DNA of 64,000 bases. Source: a virus. The position numbers were made by a program, and so were the translations under genes. Below, one piece after another: positions 2,318-57,416 of the stretch. A model generated the notes under the pieces. That model was not told the origin of the DNA, did no database searches, and was given only the letters and a program-made list of their open reading frames with translations. The DNA lies in the IMG/VR virus record IMGVR_UViG_3300031753_000002, positions 22,785 to 86,784 of that record; one strand, 5' to 3'. Within the stretch, counting starts at the first letter, position 1; each line of letters starts with the position of its first letter.

Positions 2318-4552
2318 ATGGGAACTCTCGATATCGCCCTCGATTGGTTGCGCCGTCATCCCGGCCACCACCTGTTTCCGACGAAAAACAAGTCGCAACC
2401 GCTTCTCGCGGAATACTTGAAAGCGTCCAGCAACAACCCTACGCAAATCCGCACATGGCACGCCTATTGGACTCAGCGGCTAGGCGAGGAACCGTGGTGG
2501 GGCCTCGCGCCCGAACTGTCCAAGATCGTGCCTGTTGATATTGATACCAAGCCGGGCAAGAGCGGGCAAGAAACATATGAGGCGCTCAACCTCGCCTATG
2601 GACCTTGGCCGCCGACGCTCGCCGTCGAGACGCCAAGTGGCGGCCGGCATCTGTGGTATGAGGGACCGCACCTATTCGCGCTTGGCTCTCCCAAATCTCA
2701 GCACCCTGGCATCGACTTTGCGCAGTTCATTCTCCTTCCCGGTTGCGGCGCTTACAAAGCGCTTAACGCTCGCCCAATCGCACCCGCGCCTGAGTGGTTT
2801 TACACTATCGCCAAGAAGCCCGAACGCGACATTGCGGAAACGCAAGAGCCTTCGACAGACCTCGATACCGACGCGGCGATCAAAGAAGCCACGTATTATC
2901 TGATCCATGACGCTAAGCCGTCCGTCCTGTATCAAAATGGCGAGAAGGCGCTGTATAATACGGCGTGTTGGCTCAAGGACCATAGCATCTCGTTTCAGAC
3001 GGCGTGCGAACTGCTTCAAGAACACTACAACGTTTTCCCCACATGCGACCCGCTGTGGAATTACGACGATGGTCCGGCGGCTGACCAGCTTGTCGTCAAA
3101 GTCCGCAACACCTACACCTACGCCAAAGAGAACGCGCCGGGCGAGAAGACGCCTGAGTCAGAATTCCGCGATGATGCGCCCGAACCGTTGACGCCGGCAG
3201 AGAAGAAAGCCGAGAAGAAAGCCACCAAGGAAAAGGCGCAAACTGAGAAGCTAGTCAAGCGCCCTCCCGAGGAACGTAGCCGCATCTGGACCTTCGCCGA
3301 GCTTTGCGATGAATGGGTTTGGCTGACCGTAATTGACCGCTTCTTGTTGCGCGCCGAGCCGGACATGATGTTGAAAACGGAAATCTTCGACAAGGCGTTC
3401 GCGTATGCTCGACCGGGCAAGGCAACGAAGCTCTCAAAGGCCATGTTCGATAAAGCGACCAAAACAATCCGAAAGCTCAAACGATCTGTGTTCATGCCCG
3501 GCAAACCAGAATTCCTTAATCACGGCCTCGATTACAATCTGTGGCGCCCTTCGTTGATCGTGCCCGCGCAAGGCGACACGACGCTTTGGAATGCGCATCT
3601 CGACTATCTCTTTCCTGATTCAGTGGACCGCGACCATGTGCTGAATTGGCTGGCGTGGTTCCTACAAAATATTGGCTTGAAACCGAAGCATGCATTGCTG
3701 ATTGCCGGCCGTATCCAAGGTACAGGCAAGAGCTTCATCGCCGAGGTTCTATCGCACATTATCGGAACAAAGAACGTTTCACCTATCGGTTCTGCCGAAC
3801 TGTCTAGTACGTTCAACAAATGGGCCATGGGATGTAAGCTTTTGTTATGCGAGGAACTGCGCGCGCTTGAAAGGGGCGAGGTCGCAAAGAAGCTGCACCC
3901 GATCATCACGCAAGAGGCAATCCCGATCAACAACAAGAACCAAGAGACGTTTGTTGCCGACAACTGCTTTGGCGTGTTTGCGATGACAAATGACGATGCC
4001 GCCATTCCACTTGACGGGACAGACCGCCGCTACCTTGTCGTGCGGACCAAGGCCAAGCCGAACCCCGATGCCTACTACAAGACGCTCTATGGTATTCTCA
4101 AAGATCAAAGCGCACTTGGCGCTATCGCCTGGGAGTTGATGCACCGCGACGTTGGCGCTTACGACGGTCAAGCCAAGGCGCCCTACACGGTCGCTAAGGG
4201 CGATATGATAGAGGCTGGCCTGAGCGATCTTGAACATTGGATAGTCGAGCATTCGAAGCAGCCACCATTCACGCGGCGCGTCATCTGCATTGACGACGTG
4301 ATCGAAATACTGCCAGCGCGCTTGCATCGGCAACAGCGTCTTGGCAATACGATTGCCTCGATCTTGCGTTCACGATTCCAAGGGGAAAAGATAGGGCAAT
4401 ACCGCTGCGGCGGGGAATTCAAGATGTTGTGGGGTATCAACGGATTTAAGCCGTGGAAGGAAGATGGCAGCCTCGGGAAAATCTATATGAAAGACCGCCA
4501 GGACGGTCCCGCCCCGGCGGCCCAAGACTTTGCAGAAGATGCCGGCGCCTAG
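2318..4552 (+). CDS. Primase-polymerase/SF3 helicase replication protein (NrS-1-like)
   Basis: A single 744-residue replication enzyme. Residues 1-165 match an archaeo-eukaryotic-type primase-polymerase (Prim-Pol): D74 and D76 in VPVDIDTK are the metal-binding pair, and SGGRH (107-111) is the SxH-type motif. A lysine- and glutamate-rich linker (290-320) follows. Residues 320-600 form a superfamily 3 helicase of the DUF5906/D5 type: Walker A GRIQGTGKS (464-472), Walker B LLLCEE (508-513), the sensor AMTND (555-559) and Arg570/571 as arginine finger. This combination is that of the phage NrS-1 polymerase, which primes, unwinds and extends DNA. I choose ATG 2318 because AAGG lies seven bases ahead; an ATG five codons upstream has no such site. 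The adjacent repeat region is its likely target. Confidence 0.85.
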   Translation: MGTLDIALDWLRRHPGHHLFPTKNKSQPLLAEYLKASSNNPTQIRTWHAYWTQRLGEEPWWGLAPELSKIVPVDIDTKPGKSGQETYEALNLAYGPWPPTLAVETPSGGRHLWYEGPHLFALGSPKSQHPGIDFAQFILLPGCGAYKALNARPIAPAPEWFYTIAKKPERDIAETQEPSTDLDTDAAIKEATYYLIHDAKPSVLYQNGEKALYNTACWLKDHSISFQTACELLQEHYNVFPTCDPLWNYDDGPAADQLVVKVRNTYTYAKENAPGEKTPESEFRDDAPEPLTPAEKKAEKKATKEKAQTEKLVKRPPEERSRIWTFAELCDEWVWLTVIDRFLLRAEPDMMLKTEIFDKAFAYARPGKATKLSKAMFDKATKTIRKLKRSVFMPGKPEFLNHGLDYNLWRPSLIVPAQGDTTLWNAHLDYLFPDSVDRDHVLNWLAWFLQNIGLKPKHALLIAGRIQGTGKSFIAEVLSHIIGTKNVSPIGSAELSSTFNKWAMGCKLLLCEELRALERGEVAKKLHPIITQEAIPINNKNQETFVADNCFGVFAMTNDDAAIPLDGTDRRYLVVRTKAKPNPDAYYKTLYGILKDQSALGAIAWELMHRDVGAYDGQAKAPYTVAKGDMIEAGLSDLEHWIVEHSKQPPFTRRVICIDDVIEILPARLHRQQRLGNTIASILRSRFQGEKIGQYRCGGEFKMLWGINGFKPWKEDGSLGKIYMKDRQDGPAPAAQDFAEDAGA

Positions 4553-4980: not shown

Positions 4981-5232
4981 TCAAGACCGTCGAGAGAACT
5001 GGCGCAGTCGGGTGCCGGCCCCGGTGTAAAGCTTGAGCATCTCTTGGACCGCCGCGGTGTCGATTCGAAGGCGGGTTACCGCCTCGCCGACCGTCTCGCC
5101 GGATAGCAGGCAAACGGAGGCGAGCGCCCCGGCGGCCATGGAAAGGGCATGTTCGCGGTTCCAGGGCTGGCATGTCGCGGCCCGCCGCAGGAAGGCGAGC
5201 GTTTGCTGTTCGGAGGTTTTTTGCGTCCTCAT
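4981..5232 (-). CDS. Hypothetical protein, 83 aa
   Basis: The frame is open from 5460, but the upstream part translates the DNA repeats at 5375-5502 and looks random. I therefore choose ATG 5232, which has GAGGAT ahead. The product (MRTQKTSEQQTLAFLRRAA...) is helical, with a hydrophobic alanine-rich segment in the middle (ALSMAAGALASVCLLSG). It may be a small DNA-binding or membrane-associated protein. It is the last leftward gene before the repeat region, so it may be controlled from there. Confidence 0.55.
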   Translation of the reverse strand: MRTQKTSEQQTLAFLRRAATCQPWNREHALSMAAGALASVCLLSGETVGEAVTRLRIDTAAVQEMLKLYTGAGTRLRQFSRRS

Positions 5233-5374
5233 AGGATGAAATCCTCGCGAAGCTTTTTGGCTAGACCGATATTCGCTCCGCCAGGTCTTTGTTGACTTGG
5301 GCATCGGTCCCTGGTCAGCGCGAGCGATGAGTGAGATCAACATTTTGGTGGACTTGGACCCTTCGGTGACTATG

Positions 5375-5502
5375 GCATCTAGCCGATTTTTTAGCAGATC
5401 ACCGGGCAAATTCATGAATGATTTCAGAGTGCATCTAGCCGATTTTTTAGGTGGTGTCAACGGCGTGATCGCAGGTCACCGGGCAAATTCATGAATGATT
5501 TC
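5375..5502 (+). repeat. Two nested direct repeats (20 bp and 27 bp)
   Basis: A 20-bp word beginning GCATCTAGCCG occurs at 5375-5394 and 5431-5450. A 27-bp word beginning TCACCGGGCAAATTC occurs at 5399-5425 and 5476-5502. Both pairs are identical and keep their order, so the block is an imperfect tandem duplication. Confidence 0.85.
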
Positions 5503-5701
5503 GGCGTAGTGCATATGCTGTCCGGTTCTATGGTCACCATAAATTCGTTTGTTATTTCAATTGGCTATCATATGGGTGACCCTGTTTACCCTATATTACT
5601 ATATATAGGAATTATAATATATGTATGTATGAAGTGGAAATTCGCACTCTGGGTCACCTATACGTTAAGTTATTGTTTTATCAGAGTAAAATATGGTGAC
5701 C
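5474..5701. repeat. Cluster of five GGTSACC sites
   Basis: GGTCACC or GGTGACC occurs at 5474, 5532, 5575, 5652 and 5695, at intervals of 43-77 bases. The DNA between them is AT-rich. Such spacing suits binding of one protein to several near-palindromic sites. Confidence 0.5.
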
Positions 5702-5760
5702 TAGGGCCAAGCTCTGGGTACGACATCGGGCGCCTCGACTAAAAGTGGATTTTATGCCAT

Positions 5761-5821
5761 GTTAACCATTTTTGTTCACCATTTACACCTGCGTTAACCA
5801 TTTTTGTTCACCATTTACACC
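5761..5821 (+). repeat. Tandem 29-bp repeat containing TTAACCAT
   Basis: Two identical copies lie at 5761-5789 and 5793-5821, 32 bases (about three helical turns) apart. Each starts GTTAACCATTTTTG and ends with CACCATTTACACC. Confidence 0.85.
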
Positions 5822-5883
5822 CATGTGTACCCACTTAAATCACTGATTTTGCTCACGAAATCGGTTCTTTAGGTACCTCGGGC

Positions 5884-6186
5884 GGGTCCTGGCGTACCGG
5901 AAAGGCTAAAAATTAACATTAATGACCATGGCTCCCCCGTCGTTAACCATGCAGGAGCCGGGGCAGGCGGTCGCGCATTAACGTTAATTTTTAGTCTTAT
6001 CTTGCGATATGCCATAGCACCCGTTAAGGTTAATTCGCGGCCCCACCTCCGGCCAGCCGCGCATTAATATTAATTTTTAGTCTTACCTTGCGATGCCATA
6101 GCACTCGTTAAGGTTAATTCGGGTCCTGGCGTACTATAAAGGCTAAAAATTACCGTTAATGACCATGGCACCCCGTCGTTAACCAT
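5884..6186 (+). repeat. 67-bp imperfect direct repeat
   Basis: The copies at 5884-5950 and 6121-6186 both start GGGTCCTGGCGTAC, pass through AAAGGCTAAAAATTA and TTAATGACCATGG, and end CGTCGTTAACCAT. Differences are scattered point changes and one base of length. Confidence 0.8.
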
Positions 6187-6300
6187 GTTTAATAAGTTTA
6201 ATTTTTAAGGTTACCACGGAAGGCCCGGGGCAGGTAAAGGCTCTACCGCCGGCCAGCCGCGCATTAACGTTAATTTTACACTGCGATGGCCATAGCACCC
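5972..6300 (+). repeat. Three 60-bp repeats centred on conserved 12-bp palindromes
   Basis: Copies at 5972-6036, 6059-6120 and 6251-6300 (shorter) share CGCGCATTAA..., TTTTTAGTCTTA, GCGAT, GCCATAGCAC and GTTAAGGTTAATTC blocks. Each carries a perfect palindrome: ATTAACGTTAAT (5978), ATTAATATTAAT (6063) and ATTAACGTTAAT (6263). The variant copy changed both central bases and stayed palindromic. Confidence 0.8.
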
Positions 6301-6688
6301 GATACTTAAAGATTGATGCATTAACCCAAGCGAGGCACCCCGTACGGGGAGCAGCCCAAGTTGGGGTCAGTTTGGGGGTGTCTGCGAGCTACGGGGTAGG
6401 ACCCAATTAACCACATCGAGCGAAAAATGCTATGTGCCCTACGGTATGCTCTCTTTCAGAAATTCCTAAAAATAAACGAAAAATAATAAAAATGAAAAGT
6501 GGAAAAATCTCGCCCCCTCGTTGTCTAAAAATTAACAACGAATCCAGGTCTCGCTTGACGCGCGCCTAACCGGCTGCCATACGTTGAATCCGTTGCAACC
6601 CGGAACAGGGCGGCGCGTTGTGGTGCCCTCCTAACAACTCTCTGGTGATGATCGAGGGCTCCGTTGAAGCGTTAAAAGGGAGCATGCT

Positions 6689-6865
6689 ATGAGTCGATAT
6701 ATCGTTTCAACTGAAGATGTGCACCACTCGTGCTGCTACGCGGCGGAGGTTCTCGATACAGAGACACTCGATCGCCACGACAATCCGGAGCGGATTTGCG
6801 AGTGTTTCGACCGTGCCACTGCGGAGAAAATCGCAGCGGCGCTCAACACAACGGAGGTGACATGA
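6689..6865 (+). CDS. Hypothetical protein, 58 aa, first gene of rightward operon
   Basis: ATG 6689 follows the ribosome binding site AAAAGGGAG. The product (MSRYIVSTEDVHHSCCYAAE...) has a double Cys and ends with a helix (ATAEKIAAALNTTEVT). It resembles small alphaproteobacterial phage proteins that begin with a strand and end with an 'exclusion of residues by helix' segment, but no function is known. It overlaps the next gene by ATGA. Confidence 0.65.
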   Translation: MSRYIVSTEDVHHSCCYAAEVLDTETLDRHDNPERICECFDRATAEKIAAALNTTEVT

Positions 6866-17772: not shown

Positions 17773-18108
17773 ATGGCACAAGAAATCGTTGGTTCTCGGA
17801 TGCCGACGTTGGCGTCCGATGCGCTTCACCCGTCCGATCGCGGCTATGGACAGAACGGCTTTGCCGGGCCGTCGAGTGATGAACCGGGACAGAACAGCAA
17901 GAGCGGTTTCCTGCCCGGTGTCGATCTAGCCGCGGCTGTGGCCGATAATGGGCTGCGATCGGCTCCGCAAGAGCTTTCGCGTTCGGGAATGGAGCGTCCG
18001 CGGGGTGAGAAGGGCGGCCACATTCAAGGGCCGCAGACGCGCCACGTCAGCGATGCCGGTTATCCGCCGTCGTTTGGGATGACCTCGCGGTCGCCTCGCG
18101 ACCGATAA
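17773..18108 (+). CDS. Hypothetical disordered protein, 111 aa
   Basis: I choose ATG 17773, with GGGAG ahead; the upstream extension to 17716 is hydrophobic and unlike the rest. The product (MAQEIVGSRMPTLASDALHP...) is Gly, Ser and Pro-rich with FAGPSSDEPGQNSKSGFLPG. The stop lies within an 18-bp palindrome. Confidence 0.6.
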   Translation: MAQEIVGSRMPTLASDALHPSDRGYGQNGFAGPSSDEPGQNSKSGFLPGVDLAAAVADNGLRSAPQELSRSGMERPRGEKGGHIQGPQTRHVSDAGYPPSFGMTSRSPRDR

Positions 18109-18121
18109 GACGCGTCTTATC
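18104..18121. terminator. 18-bp perfect palindrome at gene end
   Basis: GATAAGACGCGTCTTATC overlaps the stop of the preceding gene and is followed by TTTG. As RNA it forms a 7-bp stem with a CGCG loop. A second pair, TGATAA/TTATCA, follows at about 18134. It may be a weak terminator or an operator. Confidence 0.4.
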
Positions 18122-33308: not shown

Positions 33309-34085
33309 ATGTTTACTATGCCGGGTGGGAAGGTTGTATCTAGACCGCGACTTGGCGTGGTAAAAACCTATGCCGCATCCGTAGACCCGGGAACTGCGAA
33401 CGACAATACGCAGGGCTATTCGCCCGGATCGATCGGAGTTAATACTGGAACAGGGCGCGCTTTTATTTGTCGAAGTGCTGCTACAGCCTCGGCTAAATGG
33501 GGTGCGCTTGATTCAACGAATTTTGATACTTACGCGGCGAACAATTGGTATCCATCCTTTTTTGCTCCACTACCCGTTAACGGGTCAACGCTAGCTACCG
33601 GTACATCAAGTTTTTCTCCGTTCCTTGTTAAGGAGCGATCAACTTGGGGGTCGCTTGGAATCCATATTGGCACTCTAAAAGCGTCGGGTAATCTTCAACT
33701 TGCTCTATATAACGATTCAGCAAGTCAGCCAAGTACTCTTGTCGATAATACCGCGAGTATTACAACTGGTGCGACTGGATTTGTTTCGGCATCGTTTTCC
33801 GGCGGAAATCATACATTAGAACCGGGTCTTTATTGGTTTGGTCTCGCTTATGATGCGACTGCCAGCAGTTCAGCGATTTGTGATTCATGGCCAAATATTG
33901 CATCATCATTTGTTGCAGGGTTACTTGGTTCTGCCACAGGAGATACGGTTGCAGGGTTTACTCAATTGCCTACCGGCTGGACTTTTGGTCAGACGTTCGG
34001 TACTTGGGCTACTGTCTCTAGTGCGACGGCGACTACTGTCAAGAACACCCCATTTGGCGTCATGCAAAATGTGAGTAGTCCTTAA
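33309..34085 (+). CDS. Mosaic paralog 1 of tandem pair, 258 aa
   Basis: A strand-rich protein (TYAASVDPGTANDNTQGYSP, GRAFICRSAATA, STWGSLGIHIGTLKASGNLQ, LEPGLYWFGLAYDAT) with the look of a lectin-like or carbohydrate-binding virion domain. It has the same length as its neighbour at 34087. About 155 bp in the middle (from 33631) are identical in both genes at every base, while the flanks differ. It is probably a host-range or decoration protein. Confidence 0.65.
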   Translation: MFTMPGGKVVSRPRLGVVKTYAASVDPGTANDNTQGYSPGSIGVNTGTGRAFICRSAATASAKWGALDSTNFDTYAANNWYPSFFAPLPVNGSTLATGTSSFSPFLVKERSTWGSLGIHIGTLKASGNLQLALYNDSASQPSTLVDNTASITTGATGFVSASFSGGNHTLEPGLYWFGLAYDATASSSAICDSWPNIASSFVAGLLGSATGDTVAGFTQLPTGWTFGQTFGTWATVSSATATTVKNTPFGVMQNVSSP

Positions 34086-35251: not shown

Positions 35252-36169
35252 ATGACTCAAACCACAATTTTCTGCGTTCAAGACCGCAGTGGGACCTCGG
35301 CTCAACTCGTAATGGCTTCGGCGATGCCTCACCCCATCGCCGTCGGCGACACGGGCGTCTATGCTGGTACGGATTCCGTTGATGACATTGGACAAGGCGT
35401 TACCGACACTCCGGTATCGCTCGCATTCACGGTTGGGCAGATTCTAGACCCGCTTAACTTTGGCATATACACCAAGGCCGCGTTAGCCTCGGGATGGCCA
35501 CCGTCCGGCGTCGTAACGTGGAAGACTGGAGCTAACACGACCTCACCAAACACATCGTCCATTATTCAGATGGTCCCAGCGAATGCGTATATAACTGTGG
35601 CGTTTCTCAAGGAATACCATGCGAGCCGAGGTAATGCTCTCGGGTTCCCGCTCACATCGGCTGCGCAAGCGGCCATCGTTCAATCGAGTGATTATATAGA
35701 CCAGCGTTACCGGTTCAAGGGCATTAAGCTACTTCAATTTCTTACAAACCCAACGCTCGATCCTATGTTGCCATTTATAGACCCGTGGCTTTCACCTTTC
35801 GGGTTTGCGCAGATGAATTTTTTCACTCCGAGCACTACGCAGCAACACACAGAATGGCCGCGACAGGGCGTCGTCGATTGGAGTGGAGATTCGGTCTATG
35901 ACGTGCCCAAGGCTGTCAAGTTCGCATGCGCCGAGCTTGCCTTTCGAGTCCTCGCCGGCACCATCTTGATGCCGGATTATGATCCAAACGTCTCATCTGG
36001 GGGCGGAGTCATTCAAACTCGGACAGAAGATGTGGGGCCGATTCGAACAACTTACACGTATGATACCAAATTCGGTCTTGGCTTCTTCCCGGACTTTCCG
36101 CAAGTTACCCGGATGCTGTCCAGCGCGGGCCTTTTGGTCGCGGCCGGCGGCCGGACAATTATCCGCTGA
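35252..36169 (+). CDS. Head-tail connector (DnaT-like fold) with extra N-terminal domain
   Basis: Residues 1-105 are a strand-rich domain. From about residue 110 the sequence (PANAYITVAFLKEYHASRGN, AIVQSSDYIDQRYRFKGIKL, EWPRQGVVDWSG, PKAVKFACAELAFRVLAG) matches the DnaT-like head-completion adaptor that docks under the portal. The position fits. The N-terminal addition is not typical of the family and may decorate the neck. Confidence 0.65.
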   Translation: MTQTTIFCVQDRSGTSAQLVMASAMPHPIAVGDTGVYAGTDSVDDIGQGVTDTPVSLAFTVGQILDPLNFGIYTKAALASGWPPSGVVTWKTGANTTSPNTSSIIQMVPANAYITVAFLKEYHASRGNALGFPLTSAAQAAIVQSSDYIDQRYRFKGIKLLQFLTNPTLDPMLPFIDPWLSPFGFAQMNFFTPSTTQQHTEWPRQGVVDWSGDSVYDVPKAVKFACAELAFRVLAGTILMPDYDPNVSSGGGVIQTRTEDVGPIRTTYTYDTKFGLGFFPDFPQVTRMLSSAGLLVAAGGRTIIR

Positions 36170-48272: not shown

Positions 48273-48455
48273 ATGGCCGATAAGGATGATTACGCTGCCC
48301 TTGTGGCAATGCACGACAAGAATACCTCCACGGATCGCTCGGCACGGTACACCATGCTCGCCGATGCCCTCAAGCGGACTCCGGGCAGGCCCATTAACCC
48401 TGTGTTGACACAGCCGCCGCGCTTTGTTAACCAAGTTTCGCGGAGCAAGTCATGA
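48273..48455 (+). CDS. Hypothetical protein, 60 aa
   Basis: AGGAG precedes ATG 48273. [20 protein letters not shown] continues [20 protein letters not shown] and ends with a basic tail. It overlaps the next gene by ATGA. It lies between two tail fibre genes and may be their chaperone; this is inference. Confidence 0.6.
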
Positions 48456-49774
48456 CCGACCAAATCACGTATCGGACAAATGACAACACGCGTTGGGGGC
48501 CGGGCCAAGGTTCGGACCTCAGCGCGACGCAAATTGATATCAACTTTTGGTCTCTTTTCAGCGCGGTCGAGGCATTGCAGGACCATGCCGTCACATCGGA
48601 AATTGCCTATTTTAATGTGGTGAGCAGCCAACTCTATGTCCATTTCACGGACCATACCGTTCTCGGGCCGTACACGCTCCCGACTGCATCGTGGAATTTC
48701 CGCGGAGCGTGGACGCCGAATACCGGCTACGCCGTCATGGATGTGGTCACCATCAACGGGGCCGGCTCGCTTTATTTGGTCCTTGTCCAGCACACAAGCG
48801 CGGCCACGTTCGATCCGAATGCCGGCGATGGCTTGGGACACTATCTTTATGGCCTCTTGATCACGCAGCCGTCGAACGCGCTTCCGACTGGCGGAATCCA
48901 GGGTCAAGTCCTCACGAAAAATTCGCTTGCTAACTACGATGTGATTTGGTCAGACCCGATTCGCGGCGCGACCTTCATCGGCCTCGACGGCGATGATGGC
49001 GACGAAGGGATGCAGGGACCCCCCGGCAGCACGGGTGGCACGGGTGCGTCCGGCTCGCCGGGCGGCGCAACCGGAGCCACGGGCGCCACGGGCGCCTCGG
49101 GCGGCACCGGGGGCACGGGCGGCACGGGCGGCACGGGCGGCACAGGGTCGTCCGGGACGCCGGGTGGTCCTCCGGGGTCCACAGGCGCCACGGGGGCCAG
49201 CGGCGCCTCCGGGACGCCGGGCGGACCTCCAGGCCCGGTCGGGCCGTTCGGCCCCCAAGGCGATGACGGGGAGGAATCGTTCGTTCCCGGTCCGGTCGGG
49301 GCGACCGGGGCGACCGGAGGTCCCGGCCCGATGGGGCCGCCCGGATTCGCAGGGGATGACGGCGATGACGGTCAAGCCTACTACGGCACGGGTCCCATGG
49401 GCGGCACGGGCGGCACGGGCGCCTCGGGCGTTGTCGGTGTTCAGGTCACCGTCCAGGATGTTACGGCGTCCAGTACCAGCCTCACAATCGACCGCAGTCT
49501 CGGGGAAATTATCGAACTAACTCTCAGTTCGAACATCTCAGTGGCGATGACCATCAGCAATCCGGCGGCCGATGACACATTGACCAAGATCACGCTAATC
49601 ATAGCGAGCACGGGTGCGTACAACATCACCGCATGGCCGAGCGGCACGATTTGGCCCGGCGGTACCGCGCCGACCATCACGTCCGGCAGCGGAAAGAAGG
49701 ATGTAATTATCCTGATTTCCGCAGACGGCGGCACGACTTGGTACGGCAACACGGCGGGACAGAATTTCTCATGA
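48452..49774 (+). CDS. Collagen-like tail fibre, 440 aa
   Basis: Residues 1-170 form an attachment region ([40 protein letters not shown], a carbohydrate-binding-like W-x-G-x-Y-x-x-xDVV motif). Residues 180-330 are Gly-x-y triplets ([24 protein letters not shown]). Residues 335-440 form a strand-rich tip. The layout is that of a trimeric side fibre. DNA repeats under the triplets make the length prone to change. Confidence 0.75.
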
Positions 49775-56499: not shown

Positions 56500-57416
56500 C
56501 ACAGCACGTTCTTGTGACCGGCGGAGCCGGATTCATTGGAAGCCATGTCGCGGAGCAATTGCTCCGCGACGGCTATAAAGTCACCGTGCTGGACAACCTC
56601 AGCACCGGCAAGAGGGAATGGATTCCAGAAGGCGCCGGCTTCATTGAGGGGAGTGTGCTGGACCTGGACTTGCTTCGGGAATGCTGCAAAGCGTCGAGCG
56701 GAGTTTTTCATCTCGCCGCAATGAGCCGGGTTCTGCCGTCGCTCCACGGCGGTCCTGAGTCAGCGCTGTTCTCGGCCGAACAGAACATCACCGGCACTCT
56801 CAACGTATTGGTCGCCGCGGCCGAGGCCAAGGTCCGCAAGGTGGTCTATAGCGCATCCTCGACCTATTACGGGAACATGCCGGCTCCGCATTGGGAGAGC
56901 ATGCTGCCCGGCTGCCACACGCCCTATGGCATCAGCAAGTACGTCGGCGAGCTTTATGCGCGGCAGTTCTCACGCATGTACGGCCTGCCGACCATGAGCC
57001 TCCGGTATTTCCAGGTGTACGGCCCACGCTGCCCGAGCAAGGGCGAGTACGCCATGGTGTCTAGCATTTTCATTGAGCAAGCGCTCCGCGGCGAGCCGCT
57101 GACCATTCACGGCGACGGGAAGCAGCGCCGCGATTTCGTGCACGTTTCCGACGTGGCGATGGCAAACGTGCGAGCTTTCGAAAGCAACGTTGGCGATGGC
57201 GAGATTATCAACGTCGGGCGCGGCGAGAGTTTCTCGATCAAGGAATTGGCCGACCTGATATCACCTAACCAAATCACACTGCCGACGCGGGCCTTCGATA
57301 TGAAGGAAACGTTGGCAGATACTTACAAGTGCCAACAGATGCTTCGCTGGACCCCCCAAATCGGCTTCGTACAGGGAACGCAATCTCTGATGCGTACTAT
57401 GGGATTGACAAAATGA
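56496..57416 (+). CDS. galE: NAD-dependent epimerase, UDP-glucose 4-epimerase-like
   Basis: ATGA overlap with the HNH gene fixes ATG 56496. The 306-residue enzyme has the NAD loop VTGGAGFIGSH (7-17), VLDNLSTGKREWIPEG, SSTYYG and catalytic YGISK (Tyr-x3-Lys). The GalE/WbpP-type RRDFVHVSD (about 207-215) is present. It would interconvert UDP-glucose and UDP-galactose or the N-acetyl forms, supplying substrate to the mutase two genes downstream. Confidence 0.8.
   Translation: MTQHVLVTGGAGFIGSHVAEQLLRDGYKVTVLDNLSTGKREWIPEGAGFIEGSVLDLDLLRECCKASSGVFHLAAMSRVLPSLHGGPESALFSAEQNITGTLNVLVAAAEAKVRKVVYSASSTYYGNMPAPHWESMLPGCHTPYGISKYVGELYARQFSRMYGLPTMSLRYFQVYGPRCPSKGEYAMVSSIFIEQALRGEPLTIHGDGKQRRDFVHVSDVAMANVRAFESNVGDGEIINVGRGESFSIKELADLISPNQITLPTRAFDMKETLADTYKCQQMLRWTPQIGFVQGTQSLMRTMGLTK

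What the first reader, a model, noticed from the sequence alone, without database searches (positions are those of the whole stretch)
5972..6300. Three repeats with 12-bp palindromes that stay palindromic when mutated
The repeats carry ATTAACGTTAAT, ATTAATATTAAT and ATTAACGTTAAT. The middle copy differs at both central bases, yet the dyad is intact. A paired change that preserves symmetry points to binding by a symmetric protein. The copies lie next to the primase-polymerase gene and at a transcription divergence, so they are candidate iterons or operators of a new replication initiator.
Basis: partly seen in the sequence, partly recalled or inferred. Interest (0 to 1): 0.68.

Follow-up and report, generated by a model that had tools for sequence, protein, structure and literature searches.

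The report
Phage control region rich in TTAA pairs
The palindromes belong to an array of paired TTAA sites in the control region where this phage's two gene arms diverge; unrelated phages of Alphaproteobacteria carry the same pairs, probably as landing sites for a gene-timing regulator rather than as the replication start itself.

Summary
The three palindromes are real (5977-5988, 6063-6074, 6263-6274) and not chance. They are the symmetric end of a looser motif, TTAA-N2-TTAA: six exact copies plus one near copy in the 1.45-kb noncoding gap 5233-6688. Two further copies (5912, 6149) break the symmetry. Relatives mostly have asymmetric centres (CC/GG), so the "paired change" argument fails. Ten related phages carry one such array each (49 N2 sites, 0.4 expected); where checked it lies at the main divergence of the two gene arms. 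Unrelated alphaproteobacterial phages use the same dyad about 100-140 bp upstream of start codons. The published CtrA-bound gap of Brevundimonas phage vB_BsubS-Delta also contains nine N2 dyads, which the passages I read do not mention. However, the defining CtrA spacing TTAA-N7-TTAA is absent here (0 of 180 TTAA), and host-class genomes show no N2 excess. Best reading: operators for a TTAA-reading regulator, CtrA or another factor, controlling early transcription. Origin-like features exist but lie about 300 bp to the left: five GGTSACC repeats (5474-5701) around the joint AT-richest 50 bp; most relatives carry their own repeat there. The "new replication initiator" claim is not supported for the palindromes. 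Binding protein and host remain undetermined.

The parts
5233..6688 (.). Noncoding gap at the divergence of the leftward replication arm and the rightward arm
   Evidence: Gene calls: leftward genes end their 5' side at about 5232-5415 (an ORF extension to 5415/5460 is doubtful), first rightward gene starts at 6689; strand runs for the whole 86.8-kb record
5474..5701 (.). Five GGTSACC palindromes (5474, 5532, 5575, 5652, 5695), candidate origin repeats; inner four spaced 43-77-43
   Evidence: 5 against 0.047 expected, 0 of 1000 shuffles (motif chosen after the fact, but the best 7-mer count of 5 exceeds the shuffle maximum of 4); lineage-specific repeats at the same place in most relatives
5592..5641 (.). 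AT-rich core, candidate DNA unwinding element
   Evidence: 82% AT, joint highest 50-bp window of the 64 kb
5761..5821 (+). Two identical 29-bp repeats GTTAACCATTTTTGTTCACCATTTACACC (5761-5789, 5793-5821), each with a TTAACCAT element
   Evidence: D9
5913..5922 (.). TTAA-N2-TTAA dyad, centre CA (not palindromic)
5977..5988 (.). TTAA-N2-TTAA dyad, perfect palindrome ATTAACGTTAAT
6023..6034 (.). TTAA-N2-TTAA dyad GTTAAGGTTAAT, centre GG
6063..6074 (.). TTAA-N2-TTAA dyad, perfect palindrome ATTAATATTAAT
6107..6118 (.). TTAA-N2-TTAA dyad GTTAAGGTTAAT, centre GG
6149..6160 (.). Degenerate dyad ATTACCGTTAAT
6263..6274 (.). TTAA-N2-TTAA dyad, perfect palindrome ATTAACGTTAAT
5943..5950 (+). TTAACCAT element (others at 5762-5769, 5794-5801, 6179-6186); resembles the CtrA half-site
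6386..6443 (+). Conserved leader: GAGCTACGGGGTAGGACCC (6386-6404), found in all ten relatives, and GCTATGTGCCC (from 6429), 43 bp on in six of them
   Evidence: no support for an RNA fold, no Rfam match
6555..6583 (+). Weak promoter-like TTGACG-N17-CATACG before the first rightward gene; better TTGAC-N17 sites at the same place in relatives
   Evidence: read from sequence; not found by the strict scan
2318..4552 (+). Primase-polymerase with SF3-type helicase (neighbour, position not conserved)
   Evidence: Pfam Prim-Pol and DUF5906, PHROG primases

Best explanation
The palindromes are members of an array of TTAA-N2-TTAA regulator-binding dyads (RTTAA-SS-TTAAY) in the central control region of an alphaproteobacterial siphovirus. 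The array sits in the noncoding gap at the divergence of the two gene arms, just upstream of the rightward early transcription unit. A TTAA-reading regulator, probably host-derived, binds the dyads together with single TTAACCAT elements and switches early transcription with the state of the host cell, as shown for CtrA in other phages with such gaps. Shown here: the dyads, their excess, conservation, intergenic and promoter-proximal placement. Inferred: binding, the identity of the protein (CtrA about 40%), the direction of regulation and the host.
For: Ten relatives each have one array with 49 N2 dyads in total against 0.4 in shuffles. It lies at the main strand switch in the records with gene calls, with a conserved leader and promoter-like sites downstream. 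In unrelated phages of Sphingobium, Erythrobacter, Citromicrobium and Brevundimonas the dyad is intergenic (12/12, 39/42, 5/5, 51/54) with median distance 97-131 bp to a start codon (control pattern 0). In G036 it stands upstream of TTAACCAT and a CTTGACC-N17-TAGA promoter, gene after gene, in either orientation. The gap of vB_BsubS-Delta, where CtrA was shown to bind and repress (PMC9437464), holds 9 N2 dyads beside 6 N7 sites. The same paper counts Sphingomonas phage MMDA13, with the same gap layout, among CtrA-site phages; MMDA13 has 2 N2 dyads.
Against: The canonical CtrA spacing TTAA-N7-TTAA is absent from all ten arrays (0; 0.4 expected, so absence alone is not depletion). N2 is not enriched in 15 alphaproteobacterial genomes (49 against 87 control), nor generally in 114 more, whereas N7 is (120 against 37). 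In family A the dyads lie some 500-650 bp from the first start codon, and promoters in this window are weak. The host of this phage is not known.
Confidence: 0.58

Rival explanations
1. The TTAA dyads are iterons of the phage replication origin, bound by a phage initiator (PrimPol or other).
For: Cumulative T-A skew peaks at the array in four of four genomes and the G-C minimum is 1-4 kb away. The gap also holds an AT-rich core and lineage-specific repeats.
Against: Skew at four-fold sites follows gene strand and does not switch elsewhere, so it is explained by transcription. Dyads occur in both orientations with irregular spacing (65, 86, 86, 114 bp) and are found upstream of single genes in other phages. 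PrimPol relatives without N2 exist, and PrimPol position is not conserved. The lineage-specific repeats are better iteron candidates.
Confidence: 0.15
2. The gap has two functions: an origin in its left half (GGTSACC repeats and AT core, 5474-5701) and a transcription control array in its right half (TTAA dyads). The TTAA regulator may couple replication start to the host cycle.
For: Seven of ten relatives have a short repeat (4-9 copies) left of the array, different in each lineage: GGCAACCC, ACTCAGAC, CTGAGGCA, CTGGCAC, ACCGCTCA, ATCCGAGA (weak), GGTSACC. In G004 they form two direct pairs facing two inverted pairs. Caulobacter CtrA also binds the host origin (established knowledge).
Against: No replication data; left repeats not significant in L177, L182, G001 or in the Delta gap; motifs were picked after the fact.
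Confidence: 0.45
3. The dyads are sites of a dedicated phage-encoded DNA-binding protein.
For: N2 is a phage signature absent as an excess from host-class genomes. A GapR-family protein is encoded in 9 of 21 N2 phages, G000 included, and in 0 of 13 records without the arrays or with few dyads.
Against: No protein family found is shared by all N2 phages and missing from RDJL3 apart from a structural-looking one. GapR is missing from near-complete G001, G002, G018, MMDA13 and Lacusarx, and known GapR prefers AT-rich DNA without a spaced motif.
Confidence: 0.2
4. The palindromes are neutral by-products of local duplication in AT-rich noncoding DNA.
For: Copies lie in longer duplicated units.
Against: The 6-bp spacing recurs in ten diverged relatives and in unrelated phages, while 4-5 and 8-12 bp spacings are nearly absent in family A.
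Confidence: 0.03

Closest known systems
CtrA-site gap of Brevundimonas phage vB_BsubS-Delta (Mascolo et al. 2022, PMC9437464)
   Same: 1.3-kb noncoding gap between divergent arms; about 30 TTAA; N2 dyads with the same RTTAA-SS-TTAAY form and the same 6/7/13/19-bp spacings (9 N2)
   Different: Delta also has 6 canonical TTAA-N7-TTAA sites; the window array has none. The phages are not close relatives.
Sphingomonas phage vB_StuS_MMDA13 (PMC7472734; L243)
   Same: 1186-bp noncoding region between arms, next to primase/helicase, GTTAACCAT repeats and 2 N2 dyads
   Different: Fewer N2 dyads, one N7 site; low overall similarity
Promoter-upstream N2 dyads of phages XM05, vB_EliS-L02, Lacusarx, vB_CbaS-RXM and Marchewka
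   Same: Same 10-bp dyad with centre CC/GG, intergenic
   Different: Spread one per gene about 100-130 bp before the start codon instead of gathered in one gap; Marchewka pairs it with N7 sites
Iteron origins
   Same: Left part of the gap has short repeats around an AT-rich core
   Different: The palindromes named in the finding are irregularly spaced, in both orientations, and shared by phages with unrelated replication repeats

Membership tests
CtrA-regulated phage gap (LPEG-type) | Large noncoding gap separating divergently transcribed arms | tested here: met
   5233-6688, main strand switch of the 86.8-kb record
CtrA-regulated phage gap (LPEG-type) | Strong local concentration of TTAA elements | tested here: met
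   26 of 92 TTAA in 1 kb; 27 against 11.5 in shuffles of the gap
CtrA-regulated phage gap (LPEG-type) | Canonical TTAA-N7-TTAA sites | tested here: not met
   0 in the gap and 0 in ten family arrays; only one in the 86.8-kb record, at window 51393
CtrA-regulated phage gap (LPEG-type) | Alphaproteobacterial host that encodes CtrA | tested here: inconclusive
   Host unknown. Indirect: GapR gene of alphaproteobacterial type, relatives among phages of alphaproteobacteria by PrimPol and portal (RDJL3)
CtrA-regulated phage gap (LPEG-type) | Binding and regulation by CtrA | not testable with these tools
   Needs gel shift and reporter assay
Replication iterons | Repeats in one orientation at regular, helix-phased spacing | tested here: not met
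   Palindromes spaced 65, 86, 86, 114; CC and GG orientations mixed
Replication iterons | Conserved linkage to the initiator gene | tested here: not met
   PrimPol inverted or 2-10 kb away in relatives
Replication iterons | Strand-skew switch not explained by gene direction | tested here: not met
   Four-fold-site skew tracks gene strand
Replication iterons | AT-rich unwinding region beside repeats | tested here: met
   5592-5641, but beside GGTSACC repeats and not the palindromes

The most novel reading that the evidence does not exclude
TTAA-N2-TTAA is a distinct regulatory element, separate from the CtrA N7 site, that unrelated phages of Alphaproteobacteria use independently and that their hosts' chromosomes hardly use. 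It would be read by an unidentified regulator, or by CtrA in a dimer arrangement not seen on host promoters.
Probability: 0.4. Interest if true: 0.72.

Novelty: new variant of a known kind. Interest (0 to 1): 0.5.

Why it matters
CtrA-timed phage development ('lytic deferment') was defined on TTAA-N7-TTAA sites. Here a whole phage group has the same control gap but only N2 dyads, and the best-studied CtrA gap turns out to contain more N2 than N7 sites. Either CtrA reads more than the textbook spacing, or a second regulator works at these gaps; one gel shift would tell. The contrast between shared TTAA dyads and lineage-specific repeats also separates the likely operator from the likely origin in a very diverse group of uncultured phages.

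Tried and rejected
Skew as proof of an origin: rejected after four-fold-site analysis. Rfam and RNA fold of the leader: no match and no covarying structure. DNA similarity of the gap to known phages: none. Single-sequence PrimPol scan of IMG/VR: none; the portal and a PrimPol alignment gave the relatives. Sigma-70 consensus scan: no excess. PrimPol as reader of the dyads: rejected since RDJL3 and other PrimPol relatives lack N2. GapR as reader: rejected as a general explanation. N2 as a host regulon motif: rejected, with N7 as a working positive control. Shared phage-encoded regulator: none found by BLAST clustering, which would miss very small or fast-evolving proteins. Literature search for TTAACCTTAA or TTAAGGTTAA in phage context: no relevant paper.

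Full report
What is there. The three palindromes are at 5977-5988, 6063-6074 and 6263-6274. Two near copies at 5912 (centre CA) and 6149 (ATTACCGTTAAT) are not palindromic, and GTTAAGGTTAAT at 6023 and 6107 shares the frame with centre GG. The common core is TTAA-N2-TTAA, six exact copies in the gap against 0.06 expected in dinucleotide-preserving shuffles. All lie in a noncoding gap of about 1.45 kb, 5233-6688. The copies are parts of longer local repeats.

Place in the genome. The window is 22785-86784 of an 86,784-bp IMG/VR record. My gene calls show leftward genes to the left of the gap (apart from the primase-polymerase and a few small ORFs) and rightward genes to the right. The array therefore sits at the main strand switch. 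Cumulative T-A skew peaks there in four of four genomes, but skew at four-fold degenerate sites simply follows gene strand and does not switch at a putative terminus. Skew gives no independent evidence for an origin.

Relatives. Portal and PrimPol searches brought in related records. Ten phages of this group (G000, G001, G002, G004, G015, G016, G017, G018, G019, G020) have one TTAA-dense array each. Pooled, they hold 180 TTAA and 49 N2 dyads against 59.7 and 0.4 in shuffles, and no TTAA-N7-TTAA (0.4 expected). TTAA spacings of 6, 7, 13 and 19 bp dominate and 11 bp does not occur. PrimPol is not tied to the array: it is inverted in the window relative to G004 and G001 and lies up to about 10 kb off in G002. 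More distant PrimPol relatives and Roseobacter phage RDJL3 have no N2 dyad.

The symmetry argument. Over the ten arrays the two central bases are CC 23, CG 13, GG 10, CA 2, TA 1, GC 0. In seven other phages they are CC 55, GG 54, CG 6, TC 2, GC 1, AA 1, AG 1. Asymmetric centres exceed what independent half-sites would give (33 against 21.2; 109 against 57.9). The outer frame RTTAA..TTAAY is symmetric, but the centre is not selected to be palindromic. The change CG to TA in the middle copy is thus not evidence for selection on symmetry. Copies related by duplication are not independent, so these counts are descriptive.

Unrelated phages. A DNA pattern scan and its follow-up found N2-rich regions in phages with little or no protein similarity to this one. 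Through two of them I reached named phages of Erythrobacter (XM05, vB_EliS-L02), Sphingobium (Lacusarx), Citromicrobium (vB_CbaS-RXM), Sphingomonas (MMDA13) and Brevundimonas (Marchewka). N2 counts with S-S centre are 42, 41, 12, 5, 2 and 54, with none for the reversed control pattern. The dyads are intergenic (12/12 Lacusarx, 39/42 XM05, 51/54 Marchewka, 5/5 RXM) and typically 97-131 bp from the next start codon. In G036 and G042 each stands, in either orientation, upstream of a TTAACCAT element and a CTTGACC-N17-TAGA promoter. In Marchewka N2 dyads and canonical N7 sites are both present, often close together or sharing a TTAA. These facts favour a transcription-regulatory role.

CtrA. Mascolo et al. 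(PMC9437464) described gaps rich in CtrA sites in alphaproteobacterial phages, with gel shifts and lacZ data, and named MMDA13 and vB_BsubS-Delta. Delta's gap, 1312 bp with 30 TTAA as they state, contains 6 N7 sites and also 9 N2 dyads; the sections I read speak only of N7 sites and half-sites, and I did not see the supplement. The window array fails the defining spacing. Fifteen alphaproteobacterial genomes show N7 (TTAAC-N6-TTAAC) at 120 against 37 in the control pattern, but N2 (TTAASSTTAA) at 49 against 87; 114 further genomes of the class show no general excess. So N2 is a phage signature. It is not shown.

Origin-like part. Left of the array, the window has five GGTSACC (5474, 5532, 5575, 5652, 5695; 0 of 1000 shuffles) flanking an 82% AT core at 5592-5641, jointly the AT-richest 50 bp of the window. 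At the same place most relatives carry a different short repeat: G004 GGCAACCC x8, L178 ACTCAGAC x8, L185 CTGAGGCA, G017 CTGGCAC x8, L184 ACCGCTCA x8 and, weakly, G002 ATCCGAGA x4. In G004 they form two direct and two inverted pairs. No such repeat stands out in L177, L182, G001 or Delta. Lineage-specific repeats beside an AT-rich core are what a fast-evolving initiator would leave. This is an inference.

Right of the array there is a conserved leader (GAGCTACGGGGTAGGACCC at 6386 in the window; all ten relatives) with GCTATGTGCCC 43 bp downstream in six of them, then an A-rich stretch and promoter-like CTTGAC-N17 sites in relatives. No RNA structure is supported.

Verdict. A real, conserved regulatory array; operators for a TTAA-reading regulator of early transcription, with a separate candidate origin in the left half of the gap. 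It is a new variant of the CtrA-type phage gap in form, but not a proven member because the N7 criterion fails.

Noticed in passing
L005 6468-6731 (record coordinates, left of the window): The phage encodes a GapR-family DNA-binding protein (PF10073, E 1.8e-21), a type known as an alphaproteobacterial nucleoid protein; 9 of 21 N2-bearing phages have one.
   Followed up: partly
window 6386-6443: Conserved leader GAGCTACGGGGTAGGACCC with GCTATGTGCCC downstream in the related phages; function unknown, no RNA fold supported.
   Followed up: partly
window 5376-5500: Two copies each of GCATCTAGCCGATTTTTTAG and CACCGGGCAAATTCATGAATGATTTC left of the GGTSACC repeats.
   Followed up: no
L224/L225 (G036), one per gene from about 8900 on: Serial promoters each carry GAATC (a GANTC, CcrM-type site) just after the -35 and after the -10 hexamer, beside the TTAA elements; suggests GcrA/CcrM input.
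   Followed up: no
window 56547-56570 and 18104-18121: Perfect palindromes GTCGCGGAGCAATTGCTCCGCGAC (24 bp) and GATAAGACGCGTCTTATC (18 bp).
   Followed up: no
window 33572-33585: Palindrome ACCCGTTAACGGGT in the lowest-GC part of the window (33-35 kb, 46% GC).
   Followed up: no
window 48452-49774: ORF with weak collagen-repeat and CBM_5_12 matches, likely a tail fibre; its family is shared by most N2 phages but not RDJL3.
   Followed up: partly
window 35252-36169: ORF with a DnaT_2-like domain (PF20557), embedded among presumed structural genes.
   Followed up: no
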